Source: Streptomyces sp. CBMA29
GTDB lineage: Bacteria > Actinomycetota > Actinomycetes > Streptomycetales > Streptomycetaceae
DNA length: 64,000 nucleotides
Assembly: GCF_014596445.1 (NCBI RefSeq)
Contig: NZ_MECL01000224.1
Location: 62,001 to 126,000, forward strand
Direction of reading: 5' to 3'
Shown here: positions 52,602 to 62,860 of the stretch, in pieces
Position numbering within the stretch: the first letter of the stretch is position 1
How the letters are laid out: every line of letters starts with the position of its first letter
Notes under the pieces: model-generated
Seen by the model: only the letters and a program-made list of their open reading frames with translations
What the model was told of the DNA's origin: nothing
Databases searched by the model: none
Translations under genes and position numbers: made by a program

Positions 52602-53786
52602 GTGGCGCCGCAGCCGGACGCTGCCCGCGAGGTGGACGCCGAGGCGTCCTCGGCGGGGATACCGGTCGTGCCCGGGGCGCCGCACGCTTCACCCGAGGTG
52701 ACCGCCCCGCGGCCACCGGCGCCGGGAACACCGGCGCCGCCGCCGAGCGAGCTGGTGCCGCCGGGGGCCCTGGTCACCTGGGACGACTCGGCCGAGCCGG
52801 GCCCGCCCGGTGTCCCCGGCGAGCAGGACGAGGGCGGGGAGACGCGGGCGGCGGAGCGTTCCGCCGCGCGGGCCGCCGCGCTCGCCGCCACCGAGGGCTT
52901 CCACCCGCTGCGGATGCGCCCCTACGTCGCCGAGCCGGACGGCGAGGCGGGCGAGACGACCGTACGGCCGCTGCTGGCGCCCGCCGACGGCGGTCCTGAG
53001 ACCGCCGATGTCGGGCTGTTCGCCGCGCTCTACTCCGGCGTGGAGTACGCGCCGCGGGGGGACGCGGAGGCCGGGACTCCCGCCGTGTCCGCCGGAGCGG
53101 CGGCCGGGACCGGGCTGTACCAGGACCGGGGCAGACACCGGCGCCGCAGACGGGGCCTGGTGGTGGCCGCCGCCGCGGTCGCCGCCTCCGCGCTGGCCGC
53201 GGGCGCCGTCGCCGTCACCGGTCAGGTCATGGGCGACGAGCCGCGCACCGACCGGGCACTGCCGCCGGACCGGACGTCCTCCATGCCGGACGTCGAGCTG
53301 CCGACGGAGTCCACCGCCGTCGTGGGCACCGTGGCCGTCGGCGCCCCGCGCCACACCCCCGCGCCGACCACGACCTCCGCCGCCACGCCTGTGGCGCCCG
53401 AGGCAGCCACGCCGTCCCCGTCCCCCTCCACGACGGCCCCCGCCGCCACCGGCTCCTCACCGTCCGCCCCCGCCGCGCCCGCCACCACCGGCTCCTCGCC
53501 GTCCGCCCCCGCCACGCCCGCCGGCCCGACGCCCTCCACGCCCCCCGTCACCCAGACCTCCCCCGCCGCCAAGATCCTCCAGCTCGGCGACACCGGCGCC
53601 GCCGTCTCCGACCTCCAGCAGCGGCTCCGCGACGTGTGGGTCTACCACGGCCGCGTCAACGGCTCCTACGACCAGGGGGTTCGCGAGGCCGTCGCCATGT
53701 TCCAGATCTGGTACGGCGTCCGCGGCGACCCCATCGGCGTCTACGGCCCCCAGACCCGCGCCACCCTCGAACACCAGACCAGCTAG
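52602..53786 (+). CDS. membrane-anchored peptidoglycan-binding protein
   Basis: 394 residues from GTG 52602 with GGGAGG upstream. A long Pro/Ala/Glu-rich cytoplasmic-like N-terminus is followed by RHRRRRRGLVVAAAAVAASALAAGAVAVTG (one membrane helix), a Ser/Thr/Pro linker with two SSPSAP repeats, and a C-terminal PG_binding_1 domain (LQLGDTGAAVSDLQQRL, VNGSYDQGVREAVAMFQ, GVYGPQTRATLE). It probably links the membrane to the wall. Confidence 0.82.
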   Translation: MAPQPDAAREVDAEASSAGIPVVPGAPHASPEVTAPRPPAPGTPAPPPSELVPPGALVTWDDSAEPGPPGVPGEQDEGGETRAAERSAARAAALAATEGFHPLRMRPYVAEPDGEAGETTVRPLLAPADGGPETADVGLFAALYSGVEYAPRGDAEAGTPAVSAGAAAGTGLYQDRGRHRRRRRGLVVAAAAVAASALAAGAVAVTGQVMGDEPRTDRALPPDRTSSMPDVELPTESTAVVGTVAVGAPRHTPAPTTTSAATPVAPEAATPSPSPSTTAPAATGSSPSAPAAPATTGSSPSAPATPAGPTPSTPPVTQTSPAAKILQLGDTGAAVSDLQQRLRDVWVYHGRVNGSYDQGVREAVAMFQIWYGVRGDPIGVYGPQTRATLEHQTS

Positions 53787-54303: not shown

Positions 54304-54480
54304 CTACAGGCCGAGACGGTAGAAGACCTTCCCCGCCTTCTGCTCGATGCCCAGTGCCTCGTAGAACGCGAGGGCCGGGGGGTTGTCGGTGTCCGCCGTC
54401 CATTCGATCCGGGAGCACGCGGATTCGGCGGCGATCCTCTTCAGTTCGGCCAACAGGGCACGGCCTACGCCGCGACGCTG
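54304..54480 (-). pseudogene. GNAT acetyltransferase, C-terminal fragment
   Basis: QRRGVGRALLAELKRIAAES is the acetyl-CoA loop and NPPALAFYEALGIEQKAGKVFYRLGL the C-terminal strands of a GNAT enzyme. Everything before QRRG is missing; upstream sequence belongs to an unrelated plus-strand frame. It is a remnant cut at about 54475. Confidence 0.7.
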
Positions 54481-54744
54481 AGCGCTCTGCTGACGGGTCT
54501 GGGGGTTCCTGAGGAGGTGTTCCGGGTGGCGGCGGGGACGGCTGTCGAGGGTTCGGGCAGCGTGCGGTTCAAGGGGTCGCCGGAACTGGTCCGTTGGATC
54601 ACGTGGGTACTGACGCACGTGGATATGGGGACGATCCCGGATTCGCCGTACTGCCCGTTGCGCGGGAAGCGGTCGTTAGATGTCCGTGACTCTGCGGTCC
54701 GCGTGGAGGCGCAGTTGACGGCGTCCTTTCCTGGGCACTCCTGA
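54475..54744 (+). pseudogene. 3' part of an unknown gene, 5' end lost
   Basis: The frame AATLSALLTGLGVPEEVFRVAAGTAVEG to EAQLTASFPGHS has normal streptomycete codon use but no start of its own; the open frame upstream is antisense to the GNAT fragment. It ends 17 bases before the 54762 gene, suggesting an old operon truncated at the same breakpoint. Confidence 0.45.
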
Positions 54745-54947: not shown

Positions 54948-55357
54948 CGTGTGCACGTGAAATGGGCCCCCTGGCCGGCGAGGCGCAGGAGGCTTTGTGC
55001 TGTTCAGGGGGCTGCGGGCTCGTGCGGGCGGGTGCCGCTCCGGACGGGACCGGCCGTCAGGTCGCATGCTCGGCCGGAGGGCGGCAGAGCCGCCCGGCGC
55101 GCCGCAGGCGCGCCCTTGAGGAAGTAAAGAAGATCTAGACCGCCATCCCTAGGCGGCGGTATGCCCCAGGGAGGCAAGCCGCCGCGGTATCGCGAGGCCT
55201 GGCAGCCGTGCATCTGCTCGGTCGGCAGGGCCAGTGCCGGGCTCTACAGCACACAGGCTGCGGGCAGGTGACTAGCTGGCGCGACCGGCGGCGACGCGGC
55301 GGACTATGACCGCGCCCTACTTCGCGTCTGTCAGATCAACCCTCTAGGCTGCACCCT
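54948..55357. other. gap before the restriction-modification genes
   Basis: GC-rich, with several short inverted repeats (for example CCGCC/GGCGG near 55142-55157, and paired GC-rich arms at 55075-55120). No coding frame is convincing. G+C drops sharply near 55320, where the foreign genes begin. Confidence 0.4.
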
Positions 55358-56464
55358 GTGGTTCCACAGGTAGAAACGGTAGAGATGGCACTAAGTGCAA
55401 CGCCCGAGCAGAATGAAGCCTCAACCGATAGTGATCGGGTCCAGGTGCACCACGGTGACGCCTATGACCTGATGGCGACGCTTCCACCTGAATCCATCGA
55501 TCTGCTGATCACTTCGCCACCGTATTGGGGACTGCGCAGCTACGGTCAAGAGCACAACGAAAGCATCCTCAAGGATTGGCTAGCGGAAGACGCTACCAGG
55601 GACCAACTCAACGTCCCCTCTTATGAGTGGTACCGCGAGCACGGCGGCGTCCTAGGCCTGGAGCCGATGCCGGAGTGGTATATCAGTCATCTCGTTGAAA
55701 TCTTGCAACGCGGAGCGCACGCTCTCAAATCGCGCGGCAGCATGTGGATCAACGTGGGAGACACGTACTTCGCGCGTTGGTCGAGCATCCGCCACGACGG
55801 GCGCCAAGGGCTAGGTGACAATCCTCGTTCTCGGCGAAGGACGCCCATGGGCGGCTACCGGCAAGAGAAGCAGCTACTGCTCATCCCGACCCGTTTCGCC
55901 ATCGCCATGCAAGATCGTAGGTGGATCTTGCGCAATGACCTTATCTGGCATAAGCCAAATGTGCCGCCTCGCCCTGAGAAGGATCGACTCAGGCTCGCTC
56001 ACGAGCACTTCTTTCATTTCGTTAAACGCCCCAAGGAAGGCCGCGCCAAGTATTACTATGATATTGAGCAAGCAGAACCTGGAGCACGCGACGTCGTGTA
56101 CTACGACTTCGAAATGCTGGGTGACGAAGAGGAAAGCTCGTACTATGACTATCAGGAAGTCGAGGACGACGCATACGATGTGGTGATGACCCGAGTACGC
56201 TCGGGCTCAGATGGCCACTCTGCAACGTTCCCGATCGATCTCATCACACCTCGAATTCTCAGTTCATGCCCGCCTGGTGGGACTTTGCTCGATCCTTTTT
56301 GTGGTACGGGTCGCTCGCTCACCGTTGCCGCTTCGTCAGGCCGCAAGGCAATCGGTTTTGAACTTCAAAAAGAGTTCCACGCAGCGGCATCCAAGAATGC
56401 GGATGAAGCGGTGGGACAGCTCGCATTTGACCTTAACAACGAGACTGAGGGGATGGAGCCTTAA
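55358..56464 (+). CDS. DNA methyltransferase, N4-cytosine/N6-adenine type
   Basis: 368 residues from GTG 55358; ATG 55385 is an alternative. The catalytic motif TSPPYWGLR is at residues 52-60 and the SAM motif DPFCGTG at 312-318, so the order is that of the beta class. SPPY favours N4-cytosine. Between them lies an unusual acidic, Tyr-rich segment (VYYDFEMLGDEEESSYYDYQ). The next gene is a NotI-like endonuclease, so this is the protecting methylase. Base composition is clearly less GC-rich than the flanks, a sign of transfer. Confidence 0.88.
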   Translation: MVPQVETVEMALSATPEQNEASTDSDRVQVHHGDAYDLMATLPPESIDLLITSPPYWGLRSYGQEHNESILKDWLAEDATRDQLNVPSYEWYREHGGVLGLEPMPEWYISHLVEILQRGAHALKSRGSMWINVGDTYFARWSSIRHDGRQGLGDNPRSRRRTPMGGYRQEKQLLLIPTRFAIAMQDRRWILRNDLIWHKPNVPPRPEKDRLRLAHEHFFHFVKRPKEGRAKYYYDIEQAEPGARDVVYYDFEMLGDEEESSYYDYQEVEDDAYDVVMTRVRSGSDGHSATFPIDLITPRILSSCPPGGTLLDPFCGTGRSLTVAASSGRKAIGFELQKEFHAAASKNADEAVGQLAFDLNNETEGMEP

Positions 56465-57619
56465 GTGCCAAGAGGCGGCGCAAAGGCAAAGAAGGAGCCG
56501 AACAATTTTATTGCAGAGTGGTTTGGTCACAGAGTCTATCCGGTGACAGCGGAGAGTCCCGAAAGCCTTAGTGACCAAGAAGCCGAACGGTGTCCCTTCC
56601 TGACCGAAGCAACGGGGAAGCACGCTAAATGCGTCAAGCGCGTTAACTCAAAGGGCGTTTGCACTATCAGCAGCACGAGCAATGGCCAGCGTCAAGATTG
56701 GCTCGCGTGCCCGTTTCGCGCTCTCGACGTCCCGATGCTGCACGACGCGGCCCACAGGCTGTTCGGCCTTGAGGTTGGCACTGACGTCAGCATCATTGCA
56801 GTGCCGGTCTTGGAGCGGAAGGAAGTAGCCGAGGATCTTCGGGCGCGCGTCGTCTGCGGTAAGCCTACGATCGTCTATTTTCAAAACAAGCTGGGCGGCG
56901 AAATCTCAATCAGAGAGACTGATCGGTCGCCGGAATTCTCGTTCGATGCAACTATGATTGAACTGGTCCCGGATGCCAGCGGTGCAGTTTCTATTGGGCG
57001 TTACGGAATCTTCGAAATCCAGACCATGGATTTTCACGGAACCTACGCCAAGGCCGTGGCGAACCTGAGGAGCGCAAGACATATGCACAAGGGAGAGTTC
57101 GGCGACTCGCTGTCCTCTCACCCGCAGTGGCTGTCAGAAAAGGTTGAAGGCCCGAATATTGCAAACGCCTTCAAACGTACGTTCTATCAGATGATGTTTA
57201 AGTTCCAGATCGGGGCGCATGACGCTTCTGCTGGTTGCATTCTTGCTATCCCCAAGGCAGTTTGGGATAGCTGGCAGAAGCATCTCGGACGTCCAGAGCT
57301 AGCAGAGTATTCCGACGGCACCTGGCGCCTGCTGCAAGCGGGGCAGGAGCCAGTAGAAAACCCGCCAGCTTGGATCTATGTTTTCGATACTGAACTATCG
57401 GCTTCGGAAACACCGAATCGCTTGAAGCTGTGGCGGGTCATTGGAACGGATGCGGCAACTTTGAGTCACTATACTCTCGATGTTGCTCCCCAAGCAGCGC
57501 TCGAAGCAGGTGGATCCGTCGATAGGCTTAGGACCTCAATAACTGTCCGGCTTTCGAAGTACCTGCCCGAACTGCGGCCTCCAAAGAAATCCGCGAAGAA
57601 GAAGCCAGTCGTTAGCTAG
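56465..57619 (+). CDS. NotI-family type II restriction endonuclease
   Basis: 384 residues, start one base after the methylase stop. It aligns by eye with NotI along its length: NFIAEWFGHRVYP, RCPFLTEATGKHAKC, GVCTISSTSNG, DWLACPFRALD, YFQNKLGGEISI, SPEFSFDATM, YGIFEIQTMDFHG and NAFKRTFYQMMFKF. Cys43, Cys56, Cys66 and Cys82 correspond to the iron-binding cysteines of NotI; Glu146, Asp161, Glu184 and Gln186 to its catalytic residues. An 8-base GC-rich target such as that of NotI is possible but unproven. Low G+C relative to the host. Confidence 0.88.
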   Translation: MPRGGAKAKKEPNNFIAEWFGHRVYPVTAESPESLSDQEAERCPFLTEATGKHAKCVKRVNSKGVCTISSTSNGQRQDWLACPFRALDVPMLHDAAHRLFGLEVGTDVSIIAVPVLERKEVAEDLRARVVCGKPTIVYFQNKLGGEISIRETDRSPEFSFDATMIELVPDASGAVSIGRYGIFEIQTMDFHGTYAKAVANLRSARHMHKGEFGDSLSSHPQWLSEKVEGPNIANAFKRTFYQMMFKFQIGAHDASAGCILAIPKAVWDSWQKHLGRPELAEYSDGTWRLLQAGQEPVENPPAWIYVFDTELSASETPNRLKLWRVIGTDAATLSHYTLDVAPQAALEAGGSVDRLRTSITVRLSKYLPELRPPKKSAKKKPVVS

Positions 57620-57641: not shown

Positions 57642-58406
57642 TCAACGCTGAGCCGCTGACACTCTGTTCGCGGTGACGTGGTACGTCAGTTGCGTGCGTT
57701 CGGCGCTGGCGGTGAGGGTTTCGAGGAATTGCGCGCCTCCAGTGTCGGAGTGGGTTGCGCGGTGGGTTTCGAGGAGCCATGCGGTGTCGGTGATGCGGAG
57801 GGTAGAGCGGTCGTCGGGGGTGGATCGGCGGGCGGTGATGTATTCGTGCCAGGTCAGGGTGTGGCCTGCGGCGGTGAGCAGAGCGTAGATCTCGTTCGGC
57901 TCGGTGGCGGGGTTCTCCTGCAACCGAGGCTGCTGGGCGGCGAGTTCGAACGGGATGAGAGTGCGGTGCTGGGCGCGGAGTCCGGTGGTGGGGTCGACCA
58001 GTAGGTGGTGGACGGCGAAGGCTGCTTCGTCTTCGTGGCCGATGAGTTCGGCTTCGGCAGCGGTGATGTGGGTGTGGGTGGTGTGGGGGTCTTCGGCGTG
58101 GGTGAACTGGGCCTCGTAGGCGAAGAACTGCTCCCCGCGGCGGGTGATCGTCTGGTCGATGTCGGCGCGCGGGGTGGGCTGGCGGACGAGTGAGCCCTTG
58201 CCGCGCTGGCTCTCCACCAGTCCCATCGACCGGAGTTCGGCGACGGCGGCGCGGGCGGTGGGCCGACTGATGGTGAAGGCGTTCATCAGGTCGGTTTCGC
58301 TGGGGAGCATGCTGCCGGGCGGGTACTGGCCCTGGCTGATCTGCTCGGCGAGTCTGGTGGCTACGGCCTCGTAGAGGTGTACGGCTTTGGCGGTCTCGTC
58401 TGGCAT
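57642..58406 (-). CDS. GntR-family regulator (KorSA-like)
   Basis: 254 residues. The winged helix is LAEQISQGQYPPGSMLPSETDLMNAFTISRPTARAAVAELRSMGLVESQRGKGSLV; the rest is a UTRA ligand domain. Such regulators control transfer and replication genes of AICEs. It is divergent from the element's small genes; the intervening 200 bases hold a perfect palindrome. Confidence 0.87.
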   Translation of the reverse strand: MPDETAKAVHLYEAVATRLAEQISQGQYPPGSMLPSETDLMNAFTISRPTARAAVAELRSMGLVESQRGKGSLVRQPTPRADIDQTITRRGEQFFAYEAQFTHAEDPHTTHTHITAAEAELIGHEDEAAFAVHHLLVDPTTGLRAQHRTLIPFELAAQQPRLQENPATEPNEIYALLTAAGHTLTWHEYITARRSTPDDRSTLRITDTAWLLETHRATHSDTGGAQFLETLTASAERTQLTYHVTANRVSAAQR

Positions 58407-58552
58407 GCGAACTGGCCTCCCATTATCCCCGTGTCGTCGGGCTGTCAGTGGGTCGTACTACGTGCATGTCTACCCAATCAGTTGTCAGGATAAGTGCTTG
58501 CCTCTGGTCGTAAAGCGGCGCACTCTCGCAACCTATTAGGACAAGTATCTAA

Positions 58553-58568
58553 CCGGACAGGTGTCCGG
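58553..58568. promoter_or_regulatory. palindrome upstream of the AICE genes
   Basis: CCGGACA-GG-TGTCCGG is perfect over 7+7 bases. Two related direct motifs, GGATAAGTG (58491) and GGACAAGTA (58539), are nearby and could be GntR sites. Confidence 0.5.
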
Positions 58569-58604
58569 TGCTTGTCGTGACCGACGGAGAGGGTGCGTAC
58601 GCCT

Positions 58605-58995
58605 ATGCAATCCATCCCGGTGGATAGGGCGCGGCTGAGGGCGATCTTGTGTGTGGTCCCCCCGGAGCCTCGCGTGAATCCGGAGACGGGTCAGATCCGC
58701 GTGGACCGGGACGGCAACACGATCTACGTCGTGGGGCTGGTCATCCGGCAGGCGGAAGGACGGAAAGCGGACACCGTTGAAGTGGCCGTGCCTGGTCAGC
58801 CACGCGGGCTGGACGCGGGGGCTGCGCGTGGAAGTCAGGGATCTCACGGCGGTCCAGTGGCAGATGAGCGACCGGTCCGGTATCTCGTTCAGGGCGACGG
58901 CGATCACTCCTGCGCCGGAGTCGGGGCCTTCGGTGTCGACTCCGGCCGCGCCTGCTGCGGGCAAGGCCAAGGCTGGTCCTGGGGGTGAGGGGTGA
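58605..58995 (+). pseudogene. AICE-associated conserved gene, frameshifted
   Basis: The first frame reads MQSIPVDRARLRAILCVVPP to VEVAVPGQPRGL; the homology continues in another frame as LRVEVRDLTAVQWQMSDRSG to GPGGEG, stopping at 58995. The break coincides with a run of five G (58817-58821). A true mutation or a sequencing error would look the same. Related genes are common between the regulator and transfer gene of streptomycete AICEs. Confidence 0.6.
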
Positions 58996-59204
58996 TGGCG
59001 GGTACGTGGCTGGATCTGATGGACAGGCTGACGCACCTGGGGTCGATCGGTGACGTGTTGACGGTGGCGGAGCTGGACCCGGCCACGCGCCGGTTGTCGC
59101 TGCTGCGGGTGGCGCGGGGCTGCGATGAGGCGGCTTCGGCGGCGCGGCTGCTGGTGGAGACCGAAACGACCAACGCTGCGGGGACGATGGGCGGAAGTGA
59201 GTGA
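58995..59204 (+). CDS. small AICE protein of unknown function
   Basis: 69 residues from ATG 58995, overlapping the previous stop as TGATG. AGTWLDLMDRLTHLGSIGDV and RLLVETETTN are helical. No domain is recognised; coupling suggests it belongs to the transfer operon. Confidence 0.6.
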   Translation: MAGTWLDLMDRLTHLGSIGDVLTVAELDPATRRLSLLRVARGCDEAASAARLLVETETTNAAGTMGGSE

Positions 59205-59411
59205 GGCGGGGGCTGAGTTGGCCGGCTGGGCCGTGATCTGGATGCGCTGGCCGGGGCCGGGATTTTCCTGGAAGTGGCCGGGCATGACGCGCAGTTCGTT
59301 GCAGTGATGCTGCGCCTGATCGTGCGGCATGGGGAGTTCACGGCTGAGCGGGCGCGGCTGTTGCTGGCGACGGAATACGCCCCGCCTTCGGGATCGGATG
59401 GTGGTTCGTGA
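59197..59411 (+). pseudogene. small AICE gene, frameshifted
   Basis: GTG 59197 begins MSEAGAELAG; a shift near 59220-59235 is needed to reach the well-coded frame RDLDALAGAGIFLEVAGHDA to APPSGSDGGS, which stops at 59411. The second frame has no start of its own. Confidence 0.5.
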
Positions 59412-59839
59412 TGCCGTGGAAACTGATCATCTGGTTGATATCGGCGGCGTTGTGCGTGGTGCTTCTCATGCAGCCGGTGTGGGAGTGTCCGTTGCCGCGC
59501 TGGCTGGGCGGGATCACGTGGGGCTGGGCGCTGGGTGGGTTTCCGCTGACGGTCGGGCGGATGGTGACGACGTGGCGGCGGTTGTGCATTGCCACGGATC
59601 TGGCGGTGACCAACCGGCCGCGCCATGCGGTGATCGCGGGTGACCTGATGGTCAGCGGGAGTCCGTTGCGTCCTTCGGTTCCGCGTCTGGGGTTGCCACG
59701 GTTAACGTGGGCGGGTCTGCGGCTGCGTATCCGGATGCTGCCGGGTCAGACTCCGGCGCTGTATCTGGCGGCGGCCGAAGCGATGGCGCACGACTGGCGG
59801 GTCTACAGGGCTGAGGGTCGGTGTCCTGTGCCTGAGTGA
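59411..59839 (+). pseudogene. N-terminal remnant of a TraB/FtsK-like transfer gene
   Basis: 142 residues from ATG 59411 (TGATG overlap). Two membrane segments (LIIWLISAALCVVLLM and WLGGITWGWALGGFPL) are followed by RMLPGQTPALYLAAAEAMAHDWRVYRAEG, which looks like the region just before the motor domain of AICE TraB proteins. The ATPase domain is absent, so transfer by this element should be lost. A separate small Spd protein is an alternative reading. Confidence 0.55.
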
Positions 59840-59969
59840 GCCTCCGCGCTGCCCGATCTGTGGGCGCCAGCGGGAGTACCGGCGGCGTGGGCGTCTGGTG
59901 CGCTGCCGGTACTGCCGCCGCACCTGGCGCCGTCGTCATCCGCGTTCCCGTAAGCCGCCTCGTCGCTGA
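59832..59969 (+). CDS. possible small zinc-ribbon protein
   Basis: A 45-codon frame reads SEPPRCPICGRQREYRRRGR and LVRCRYCRRTWRRRHPRS, with two CxxC pairs and many Arg, as in zinc ribbons. There is no ATG or GTG start in frame, so it would need CTG 59832 or be a remnant. Confidence 0.4.
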   Translation: MSEPPRCPICGRQREYRRRGRLVRCRYCRRTWRRRHPRSRKPPRR

Positions 59970-59980
59970 GCGTGTCGGCC

Positions 59981-60025
59981 GTACTGGCCGTACTGGCCGT
60001 GCTGGCCGTGCTGGCCGTGCTGGCC
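59981..60025. repeat. 9-base tandem repeat (GTACTGGCC/GTGCTGGCC x5)
   Basis: Five consecutive units upstream of the repSA-like gene. Confidence 0.7.
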
Positions 60026-60081
60026 GGCGGGCGGATTCCGTAATCATCGCAGCTCAACCGCTACGGAAAGGAGGGCTTGTC

Positions 60082-60138
60082 ATGCCGTTCTCGGTCCTGT
60101 CCGCACGGCACGAAAGGGCTCCGCCGTCATGGCTGTGA
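60082..60138 (+). CDS. 18-residue leader peptide overlapping repSA
   Basis: ATG 60082 follows an excellent ribosome site (AAAGGAGGG). The peptide MPFSVLSARHERAPPSWL stops at 60138, ten bases into the next gene, whose own ATG (60129) has no clear site. This is the usual layout of translational coupling. Confidence 0.5.
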   Translation: MPFSVLSARHERAPPSWL

Positions 60139-61058
60139 ACCTGTACGACCGTGCCGCACGGCGTTCCGCGCTCGACCTGGCGGAGCGCCTGCGGCACTTG
60201 AGCGATACCGAAAAGGATCTGATCCGGCTTGCCAATGAGCCCGGCTACGGGCGCTGGCGTGAGCAGATCCGGGCGACAGGGGGCTGTGCCCGCCCGGTGT
60301 ATCTGTCCGGGCACGCCACTACGGCAGATCCTTCTACGGGTCTGGTAGTGCGGCACTATGACACGGCTGGGGAGCCTGGCGGGCGGCTGGCGGTCCGATG
60401 CCGCAACCGCCGTACATCAGTGTGCGCGCCGTGTTCCCGTGAGCACTCCGGGGACACCTTCCACCTGGTGCGCGCCGGACTGCTGGGCGGCAAGAGCGTG
60501 CCCACTGCCGTGGTTAACCACCCTCGGCTGTTCGTCACCCTCACCGCCCCGTCGTTCGGTGCGGTGCACCGTGCGGGCCCGGAACGTTGCCGACCCCGAC
60601 GTGATGGCGGCGAGTGCGAGCACGGTCGGCCGGTCCGCTGCGGGAAAGTCCATGCTGACGACGACCGCTTGATCGGTCAGCCACTGTGCAGTGGGTGCTA
60701 CGACTACCACGCCCACGCGTTGTGGCACGCGCATGCCGGGGAGCTGTGGAACCGCACCTGCCGTGCCATCCGGCGTCGCCTGGCGACCGCTGCGGGGATT
60801 GGTCAGGCGGCGCTGAACGAGCATCTGCGGGTGTCGTTCGCGAAGGTGGTGGAGTACCAGCGGCGTAGCAGGTTCGAATTCTGCTCTTCACCATGGACGC
60901 TCGGACAGGTCAAACATGCCCGAGTCCACGACAGTGCCGCTGGGGTGAGTGGGCGGGACACCGGAGGGCGGTTGACCATCGAACGGGCGGAGATCCGGAC
61001 ACGGACGGGCATGTACGCCGTGCACCTCGTCCCGGTGCTTGTGCTGCCTGTTGGCTGA
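60129..61058 (+). pseudogene. RepSA-like replication initiator, C-terminus replaced
   Basis: Up to VVEYQRR (about residue 247) the protein fits AICE RepSA initiators: CRNRRTSVCAPCSREHSGDTFHL, HPRLFVTLTAPSFGAVH, CSGCYDYHAHALWHAHAGELW. Family members continue with a catalytic rolling-circle half (GAVHFHA-like), which is missing. From 60867 the sequence is unrelated and begins with a tRNA T-arm-like motif. The frame stays open by chance to 61058. Loss of the catalytic half should abolish replication. Confidence 0.65.
60868..60884 (+). other. tRNA T-arm-like sequence at the repSA breakpoint
   Basis: GCAGG-TTCGAAT-TCTGC can form a T-arm with a G-U pair, followed by TCTTCACCA like an acceptor end. 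There is no matching 5' tRNA half, and the usual C after the loop is T. It may be a remnant attachment site. Confidence 0.35.
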
Positions 61059-61132
61059 GGGGGCGGTGACCGTATGGCGGAGGACCCAGTATGAGCGCTG
61101 GGTGCTGGGATCCTACACGTTGTCTCGGCCTG

Positions 61133-62670
61133 TCAGGCGGCCAACGCCGCCGCGAACAGATCCACCTCCGTGACCTTGAGCCGTTCCCCCGCGCCGTCGG
61201 GATACAGGACGAAACGTACGTCGTAGGAGTCGAGAAGTTCACGCCGTGCGGCGTCGTCCGGGGCTTCGGCCCATGCCTGGGCGACGGTCTTGCCGGTGGG
61301 CACCATCCGCATGCCTGCGGGACAGTCGGGAAGCACCTGTAACTCCTTGGTATCCCGCCCGATGCGCGCGTACTGGGTCCGGTATCACTCGGCGCCGTCC
61401 TCGTCGTTGTGCAGACCCGCCAGCCTGTCCTCACGCAGACGCTTCCGGTCCGCCTTCAACTCCGCGATCCGCGAAACGTGGCCGCTACCCGCGTCCCACA
61501 CCTTCTCCATGATCTCGCCCGACCCGTACCGCTCCAGGAACCAACGGGTGATCGTCTCATCAGCGGTCGTGAGCTTGATCGACGGGGCAGGCGCGCATTT
61601 CTCCGACCCCGTGAGCTTCTTCGCCCGGCCCGTGGACCGGTACGAAGCGCCCTCCCTTCCCCGGCTGCCGACCGTGATCGCGTTGCCGCAGTTCCCGCAC
61701 GTGCCCAGCTTCGACCCGAGCCGCTTCCCCTTCGGCGCGCAGGGTGCCGTCGCAGGCTGCGGGTTCGTGGGCCTGCACTTCTCTCGCAGCTGTCCAGGGT
61801 CGGCCGGTCCCACGGCCCCTCACACAACCGCACGGGCTGACCGGTCTTCTCGTCCAGCACCGCGCGCCCGTTGTGCGTCAGATACCCCAGTGACGCCTCG
61901 TTGGTGAGAATGAAGATCAGCGACTTCGGCGACCACGGAGTTCCCTTCGACTCCTTGCCCTACATCACCGCCATATGATCACTCGGCGAAAGGACACCTG
62001 ACCTCGTCAGCCGCGCCGCCTCCGTATACGGCGTGATCCTTCCCGTCTCATCGGCCAACAGCCGGTTGGCGACATTGCGCGCGTTCAGTGCCGCCGCCTT
62101 GTGCAGACGAACATGATCGACCTTGCCCATGGGCGTCAGACGCACGTACTCAAAACCGTACGACGGCGCGTTGTTGGGCTTCCCCATCGTCCGAGCTGTC
62201 ACGGCCCCGTCCCGGTTGCGCTTCTGCATGGCGCGCAACTCCATCTGCGCACCGAACGACTCCATGCTCAACCGCATCTCGTCGACCGGATCATCCAAGT
62301 CCCACGGACCGTCGTGCCCGTCCGTCACCAACAGCTTCTTCTGCTCATGGATCGTGTGCGCCGTGTTCAGCACATCCCACTGGTTGCGGCCGATCCGGTC
62401 CACACTCGGCCCCACGATCCCCGGATACGGACCCTCCTCACCCCGCAGCCACGGCCCCAGCTCCGGCCGCGTCAACGGGTCCGTGCCCCCCGACACCTCC
62501 CAGTCGTCCGCCCCCGCAATCACGTGTCCACCCACGCCCGCCGCCGCCGCAAGGACCTGCGCGCCCTGCTTCTCCGGCGACGACGTCGCCTCTTTCTTCC
62601 GACTGAGCCTGCGCACGCCGACCAGGCACTTGCCACAGCCGTCATACTCAGTCGTCACCATGCCGCTCAT
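61133..62670 (-). pseudogene. large serine recombinase/integrase, inactivated
   Basis: From ATG 62670: catalytic-domain start VGVRRLSRKKEATSSPEKQ (Ser nucleophile in RLS), GPSVDRIGRNQWDVLNTAH, then recombinase domain (GKPNNAPSYGFEYVRLTPMG) and zinc ribbon/coiled coil (LGTCGNCGNAITVGSRGREG, RIAELKADRKRLREDRLAG). It is broken by TAG at 61962-61960, a frameshift near 61800 and TGA (probably from TGG) at 61387-61385. The last part (LPDCPAGMRMVPTGKTVAQA to FAAALAA) ends at 61133. The original length was about 510 residues, normal for the family. Confidence 0.82.
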
Positions 62671-62706
62671 GGACCGCCGCCCTCCTCCGCACGTCACGTG
62701 CGTTTT

Positions 62707-62860
62707 GAGGAAGTCCCCTCGGGGAATTGCGCGCTCAGCCACAGCGGTGGCGCGCCTTTGAAAACCGGCCCCAGCGGGGCAGATGCTGTTGTTCTCGGGC
62801 TAACAACCCGGCGGGGGCTGGCCGCGCAGTTCCTCCCCCAGCCTTCGGCCGTGAGGTGCC
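62707..62860. repeat. streptomycete intergenic repeat
   Basis: Contains CGGGGAATTGCGCGCTCAGC, CCCCAGCGGGGCAGA and GGCCGCGCAGTTCC, the same words as in the glycosyltransferase tail and at 53.9 kb. It lies in the gap 62671-62971, with no gene. Confidence 0.6.

What the first reader, a model, noticed from the sequence alone, without database searches (positions are those of the whole stretch)
55358..57619. NotI-type restriction-modification system in a high-GC host
The endonuclease keeps the four Cys and the Glu/Asp/Glu/Gln catalytic residues of NotI. The pair is visibly lower in G+C than its surroundings. If the target is a GC-rich 8-mer, it would be frequent in this genome and would need efficient protection.
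Basis: partly seen in the sequence, partly recalled or inferred. Interest (0 to 1): 0.68.

Follow-up and report, generated by a model that had tools for sequence, protein, structure and literature searches.

The report
Mobile NotI-type restriction-modification gene pair
Two adjacent genes encode a DNA-cutting enzyme of the NotI family and the methylase that protects the host from it; this is a known kind of bacterial defence, but genome counts suggest it cuts the NotI site GCGGCCGC, which this high-GC genome avoids about six-fold.

Summary
Confirmed. 55358-57619 holds an intact two-gene Type II restriction-modification cassette in a streptomycete-like genome. 56465-57619 is a NotI homolog (PDB 3bvq, E 8.6e-80), with all four metal-binding Cys and the E/D/E/Q active site conserved in NotI and in all 23 homologs aligned. 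55358-56464 is its companion, a beta-class amino-methyltransferase with motif TSPPY. A conserved -10 box (TAGGCT) 7 nt before its GTG suggests leaderless transcription; the nuclease gene directly follows the methylase stop codon. G+C is 55.7% against 70.7%.

One reader expectation is refuted: the NotI site is not frequent here. The genome has 395 GCGGCCGC where a Markov model expects 2372 (o/e 0.17), and only 2 in this window. Among 53 genomes counted, four of the five most depleted carry this type of pair (p about 0.003). CGGCCG alone and other-flanked versions are far less affected. The likely target is therefore exactly GCGGCCGC, protected by N4-methylcytosine (inferred).

Relatives split by companion: this m4C-type methylase in one actinobacterial clade, an unrelated C5-methyltransferase elsewhere. 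The cassette moves without its flanks: beside a decayed pSAM2-like element here, in a predicted prophage elsewhere. It is a new member of a known kind.

The parts
55345..55350 (+). Putative -10 box TAGGCT, 7 nt before the methylase GTG (leaderless promoter)
   Evidence: TCTAGGCTGC-N(2-6)-GTG conserved upstream of the methylase in the streptomycete relatives L003-L006 and L169 (TTTAGGCTGC in L002), diverged in L012; occurs once in the window. Transcription start is inferred.
55358..56464 (+). Companion DNA methyltransferase, 368 aa, beta class, probably N4-cytosine. Motif IV TSPPY at 55511-55525, motif I DPFCGTG at 56291-56311
   Evidence: Pfam N6_N4_Mtase 8.3e-34, PADLOC Type II MTase 5.3e-155, motif alignment of 11 relatives.
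56465..57619 (+). NotI-family restriction endonuclease, 384 aa. Cys4 site C43/C56/C66/C82; active site E146/D161/E184/Q186
   Evidence: PDB 3bvq E 8.6e-80; residues invariant in 25 sequences; Foldseek matches NotI chains only at E<=0.001.
57642..58406 (-). GntR-family regulator (KorSA-like position), part of the neighbouring mobile element
   Evidence: Pfam GntR 1.7e-17. KorSA-like is inferred from its place beside RepSA.
60129..61058 (+). RepSA replication initiator of pSAM2 type, N-terminal half only
   Evidence: Pfam RepSA 1.7e-82, profile 2-216 of 438.
61960..62742 (-). Serine recombinase/integrase, short (probably a fragment)
   Evidence: Pfam Resolvase 2.5e-10; PHROG integrase 1.4e-20.

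Best explanation
A self-contained, mobile Type II restriction-modification cassette of the NotI family. The methylase gene is transcribed from its own promoter, probably as a leaderless mRNA, and the abutting nuclease gene is translated from the same message. The nuclease (a metal-Cys4 PD-(D/E)XK enzyme, homodimer by analogy with NotI) cuts unmethylated GCGGCCGC in incoming DNA. The methylase marks a cytosine in the host's own copies with N4-methylcytosine, since a target without A or T leaves an amino-methyltransferase no other base. Shown: gene pair, homology, active-site and metal-site residues, purifying selection, mobility of the cassette, GCGGCCGC avoidance. Inferred: cleavage, exact target, base modified, leaderless start, dimer.
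For: NotI homology and invariant residues. Beta-class methylase with TSPPY, same companion in 10 further actinobacterial loci and L169. GCGGCCGC o/e 0.167 genome-wide with control word CGCCGGCG at 0.98; four of the five most depleted of 53 genomes carry this pair, hypergeometric p 0.003. In 786 kb GCGGCCGC is the most under-represented of 90 testable 8-mer palindromes by z, and again ranks first in S. albospinus. CGGCCG 0.88, ACGGCCGT 0.91, CCGGCCGG 0.85, TCGGCCGA 0.53. Purifying selection.
Against: Avoidance is indirect. G006 lacks the pair yet has almost no NotI sites, and G003, G022, G030 and G031 are at 0.40-0.47 without it; six of ten m4C carriers show weak or no avoidance. Identity to NotI is only about 37-40%, enough divergence for a target change. 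No methylation or cutting data.
Confidence: 0.75

Rival explanations
1. NotI-family pair with a related but different target, for example the inner six bases CGGCCG or another GC-rich 8-mer; the GCGGCCGC avoidance would come from other, earlier systems in the lineage.
For: About 37-40% identity to NotI. Several congeners avoid GCGGCCGC without the pair, and several carriers do not avoid it. GCCCGGGC is absent (0 of 32.5 expected) and GCCGGC is at 0.38 in this genome.
Against: Four of the five strongest GCGGCCGC avoiders carry this clade's pair. CGGCCG itself is only mildly reduced (0.88), which argues against a 6-bp target. GCCCGGGC is not comparably avoided in S. albospinus (0.56) or S. bikiniensis (0.67), which also carry the pair.
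Confidence: 0.18
2. The pair is a silent or inactive remnant left in a decayed mobile element.
For: Neighbouring RepSA and serine integrase are fragments, so the surrounding element has decayed.
Against: Both frames are full length, all key residues are kept, the promoter-like box is conserved, and pN is well below pS against four relatives.
Confidence: 0.05
3. The methylase modifies adenine (m6A) in a target that contains A/T, so the target is not GC-only.
For: Best solved relatives by score include m6A enzymes such as CcrM, so the family score alone does not exclude it.
Against: Motif IV is TSPPY in all 11 relatives, typical of m4C enzymes (general knowledge). Related nucleases pair instead with C5-methyltransferases, pointing to cytosine as the protected base.
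Confidence: 0.05

Closest known systems
NotI endonuclease (PDB 3bvq, 3c25; cuts GCGGCCGC)
   Same: Homologous over nearly the full length, Cys4 metal site and E/D/E/Q active site conserved; probable same target by site avoidance.
   Different: About 37-40% identity; target, metal and cutting untested here.
NotI-like systems with a C5-methyltransferase (proteobacterial loci L011, L013-L020; actinobacterial L024, L027; enterobacterial plasmids L025, L026, annotated 'NotI family restriction endonuclease')
   Same: Homologous nuclease with all key residues; methylase gene directly upstream.
   Different: Companion is a non-homologous C5-methyltransferase; the carriers that were counted do not strongly avoid GCGGCCGC (plasmid hosts were not counted).
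Close relatives in Streptomyces bikiniensis, S. albospinus, Streptomyces sp. ATexAB-D23 and SID12488 (L002-L006) and IMG/VR contig L169
   Same: Same two genes, same order, 69-82% nuclease identity, same upstream box.
   Different: Different flanking DNA; L169 lies beside a phage terminase.

Membership tests
NotI family of Type II restriction endonucleases | Sequence homology to NotI over the nuclease | tested here: met
   phmmer E 8.6e-80, residues 7-373; Foldseek 2.8e-27 to 3c25.
NotI family of Type II restriction endonucleases | Four-cysteine metal site | tested here: met
   C43/C56/C66/C82, invariant in 25 sequences. Bound metal not testable.
NotI family of Type II restriction endonucleases | Active site with Gln in place of Lys (E145/D160/E182/Q184 in NotI) | tested here: met
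   E146/D161/E184/Q186; Gln in NotI noted in PMC4081073.
NotI family of Type II restriction endonucleases | Recognises GCGGCCGC | tested here: inconclusive
   Strong site avoidance associated with carriage, but no cutting or methylation data and some carriers do not avoid the site.
Type II restriction-modification system | Nuclease gene next to a separate DNA methyltransferase gene | tested here: met
   Abutting genes; same companion in 10 further actinobacterial loci and L169.
N4-cytosine DNA methyltransferase, beta class | Motif order IV then I, with (S/T)SPPY as motif IV | tested here: met
   TSPPY at residues 52-56, DPFCGTG at 312-318.
N4-cytosine DNA methyltransferase, beta class | Makes N4-methylcytosine | not testable with these tools
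   No methylation data; solved relatives by score include both m6A and m4C enzymes.

The most novel reading that the evidence does not exclude
One actinobacterial clade of NotI-type systems exchanged its companion methylase (m5C for an unrelated m4C enzyme, or the reverse) while keeping the GCGGCCGC target, and this clade has driven strong loss of NotI sites from several high-GC actinobacterial genomes.
Probability: 0.35. Interest if true: 0.45.

Novelty: new member of a known kind. Interest (0 to 1): 0.34.

Why it matters
It gives a testable NotI isoschizomer candidate and a probable NotI-site m4C methylase. It would help explain why some actinobacterial genomes have very few NotI sites, which matters for genome mapping, cloning and transformation of these strains. 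Two unrelated methylases tied to one nuclease family suggest that protection can be swapped while cutting is kept.

Tried and rejected
Pfam, NCBIfam, PADLOC and PHROGs gave no match for the nuclease, so its placement rests on PDB sequence and fold. The NotI structure paper was not held, so DNA-contact residues could not be compared. The listed results of the literature searches on the motif did not yield a methylome paper for it. No hit in phages; two distant ones in plasmids. I tested whether congeners that avoid NotI sites but lack the pair keep a copy of either methylase: none of the strongly avoiding ones did. The six-base target CGGCCG was considered and set aside because it is only mildly under-represented (0.88).

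Full report
What is there. Two intact ORFs, 55358-56464 (368 aa) and 56465-57619 (384 aa), both on the + strand and both starting with GTG, lie head to tail; the second GTG follows the TAA of the first directly. G+C of the cassette is 0.557 against 0.707 for the rest of the window, the lowest of any stretch of that length. GC3 is about 0.61, against 0.76 for the RepSA fragment and 0.94 for a gene at 52602-53786. In all 11 related loci checked the cassette is also below its surroundings, though only slightly in two of them.

The nuclease. phmmer against the PDB finds NotI (3bvq) at E 8.6e-80 over residues 7-373. AlphaFold2 on an alignment of 21 relatives gave a moderate model (mean pLDDT 71), and Foldseek's only matches at E<=0.001 are the four NotI chains. 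TM-scores are low (0.44), so sequence carries the argument. All four Cys and the E/D/E/Q residues are invariant in the 25 aligned sequences: the window protein, NotI and 23 homologs. The Fe-Cys4 site of NotI and its Gln in place of the usual Lys are recorded in PMC4081073.

The methylase. It is an N6_N4_Mtase (Pfam 8.3e-34; PADLOC Type II MTase 5.3e-155) with motif IV TSPPY near the N terminus and motif I DPFCGTG near the C terminus, the beta-class order. TSPPY is typical of N4-cytosine enzymes (general knowledge). If the target holds no A or T, an amino-methyltransferase can only make m4C (inference).

Expression. A TCTAGGCTGC element lies just before the GTG. It is conserved in the streptomycete relatives and in L169, with one change in L002 and a diverged form in Actinomadura. 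A -10 box 7 nt before the start codon suggests a leaderless transcript, with the nuclease translated from the same message (inference).

Relatives and mobility. Twenty loci came from one scan of species genomes, one each from the whole-genome searches of genus and phylum and two from IMG/VR. The nuclease is rare: 2 of 35 genomes in the genus and 2 of 396 in the phylum sample, the window's own genome counted each time. DNA similarity stops at the cassette edges. In the window the neighbours are a GntR regulator, the N-terminal half of RepSA and a short serine recombinase, which look like remains of a pSAM2-like integrative element. In L169 the pair lies next to a phage terminase. The pair therefore appears to move as a unit among different mobile elements.

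Two kinds of companion. Ten loci (L002-L010, L012) and L169 carry the same beta-class methylase; in L010 it lies downstream on the other strand. L011, L013-L020, L024, L027 and the two enterobacterial plasmids carry a C5-methyltransferase directly upstream. On the nuclease tree the m4C group is one side of a single branch (support 80/86; 86% of bootstrap trees need one change), so one exchange of companion suffices. L027 was unlabelled in that tree run; its C5-type methylase was read from the same output.

Target. Direct evidence is lacking, so site avoidance was used. In 786 kb of this genome GCGGCCGC is found 35 times against 198 expected (z -17, the most extreme of 90 testable 8-mer palindromes), while CGGCCG is at 0.88 and the other flanked forms at 0.53-0.91. 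Genome-wide, o/e is 0.167 (395 of 2372) and the reversed control word CGCCGGCG is at 0.98. Among 53 genomes the five below 0.3 are G006 (0.02), S. albospinus (0.10), this one (0.17), SID12488 (0.22) and Actinomadura logoneensis (0.25); the last four all carry the m4C-type pair (p 0.003). That p is optimistic, because the carriers are related and the threshold was set after seeing the values. A rank test of m4C carriers against congeners without the pair gives p 0.012. Rusinov et al. (PMC4687349) report avoidance for about half of orthodox Type II systems, more often for long-resident ones, and avoidance as a trace of lost systems. That fits carriers without avoidance (recent arrivals) and avoiders without the pair (past carriage). 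It also means that the avoidance here may partly predate this copy, whose low G+C suggests fairly recent arrival.

Verdict. This is a functional-looking NotI-family system, most likely a GCGGCCGC isoschizomer with m4C protection. It is ordinary in kind.

Noticed in passing
Genome G006 (congener), loci L068-L087: Only 43 GCGGCCGC in 8.2 Mb against 2282 expected (o/e 0.02), yet no NotI-like nuclease and neither methylase type was found. It may hold an unrelated isoschizomer or have lost a system.
   Followed up: partly
Genome G000, 786 kb sampled (window, L022, L023, L028-L067): GCCCGGGC (SrfI site) is absent, 0 against 32.5 expected, and GCCGGC is at 0.38; both suggest further restriction systems, present or past.
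   Followed up: no
window 57642-62742: Remains of a pSAM2-like integrative element: GntR regulator, N-terminal half of RepSA, short serine recombinase.
   Followed up: partly
window 54304-54618 (-): Short GNAT acetyltransferase-like ORF upstream of the cassette covering only the C-terminal part of the domain (Pfam 3.1e-10); perhaps a broken gene.
   Followed up: no
L005 and L006: Streptomyces sp. SID12488 carries two copies of the same type of pair on different contigs.
   Followed up: no
L169: IMG/VR contig with an 82%-identical nuclease and its methylase, lying between a phage terminase and a ParB-like gene: the pair appears to be cargo of a prophage.
   Followed up: partly
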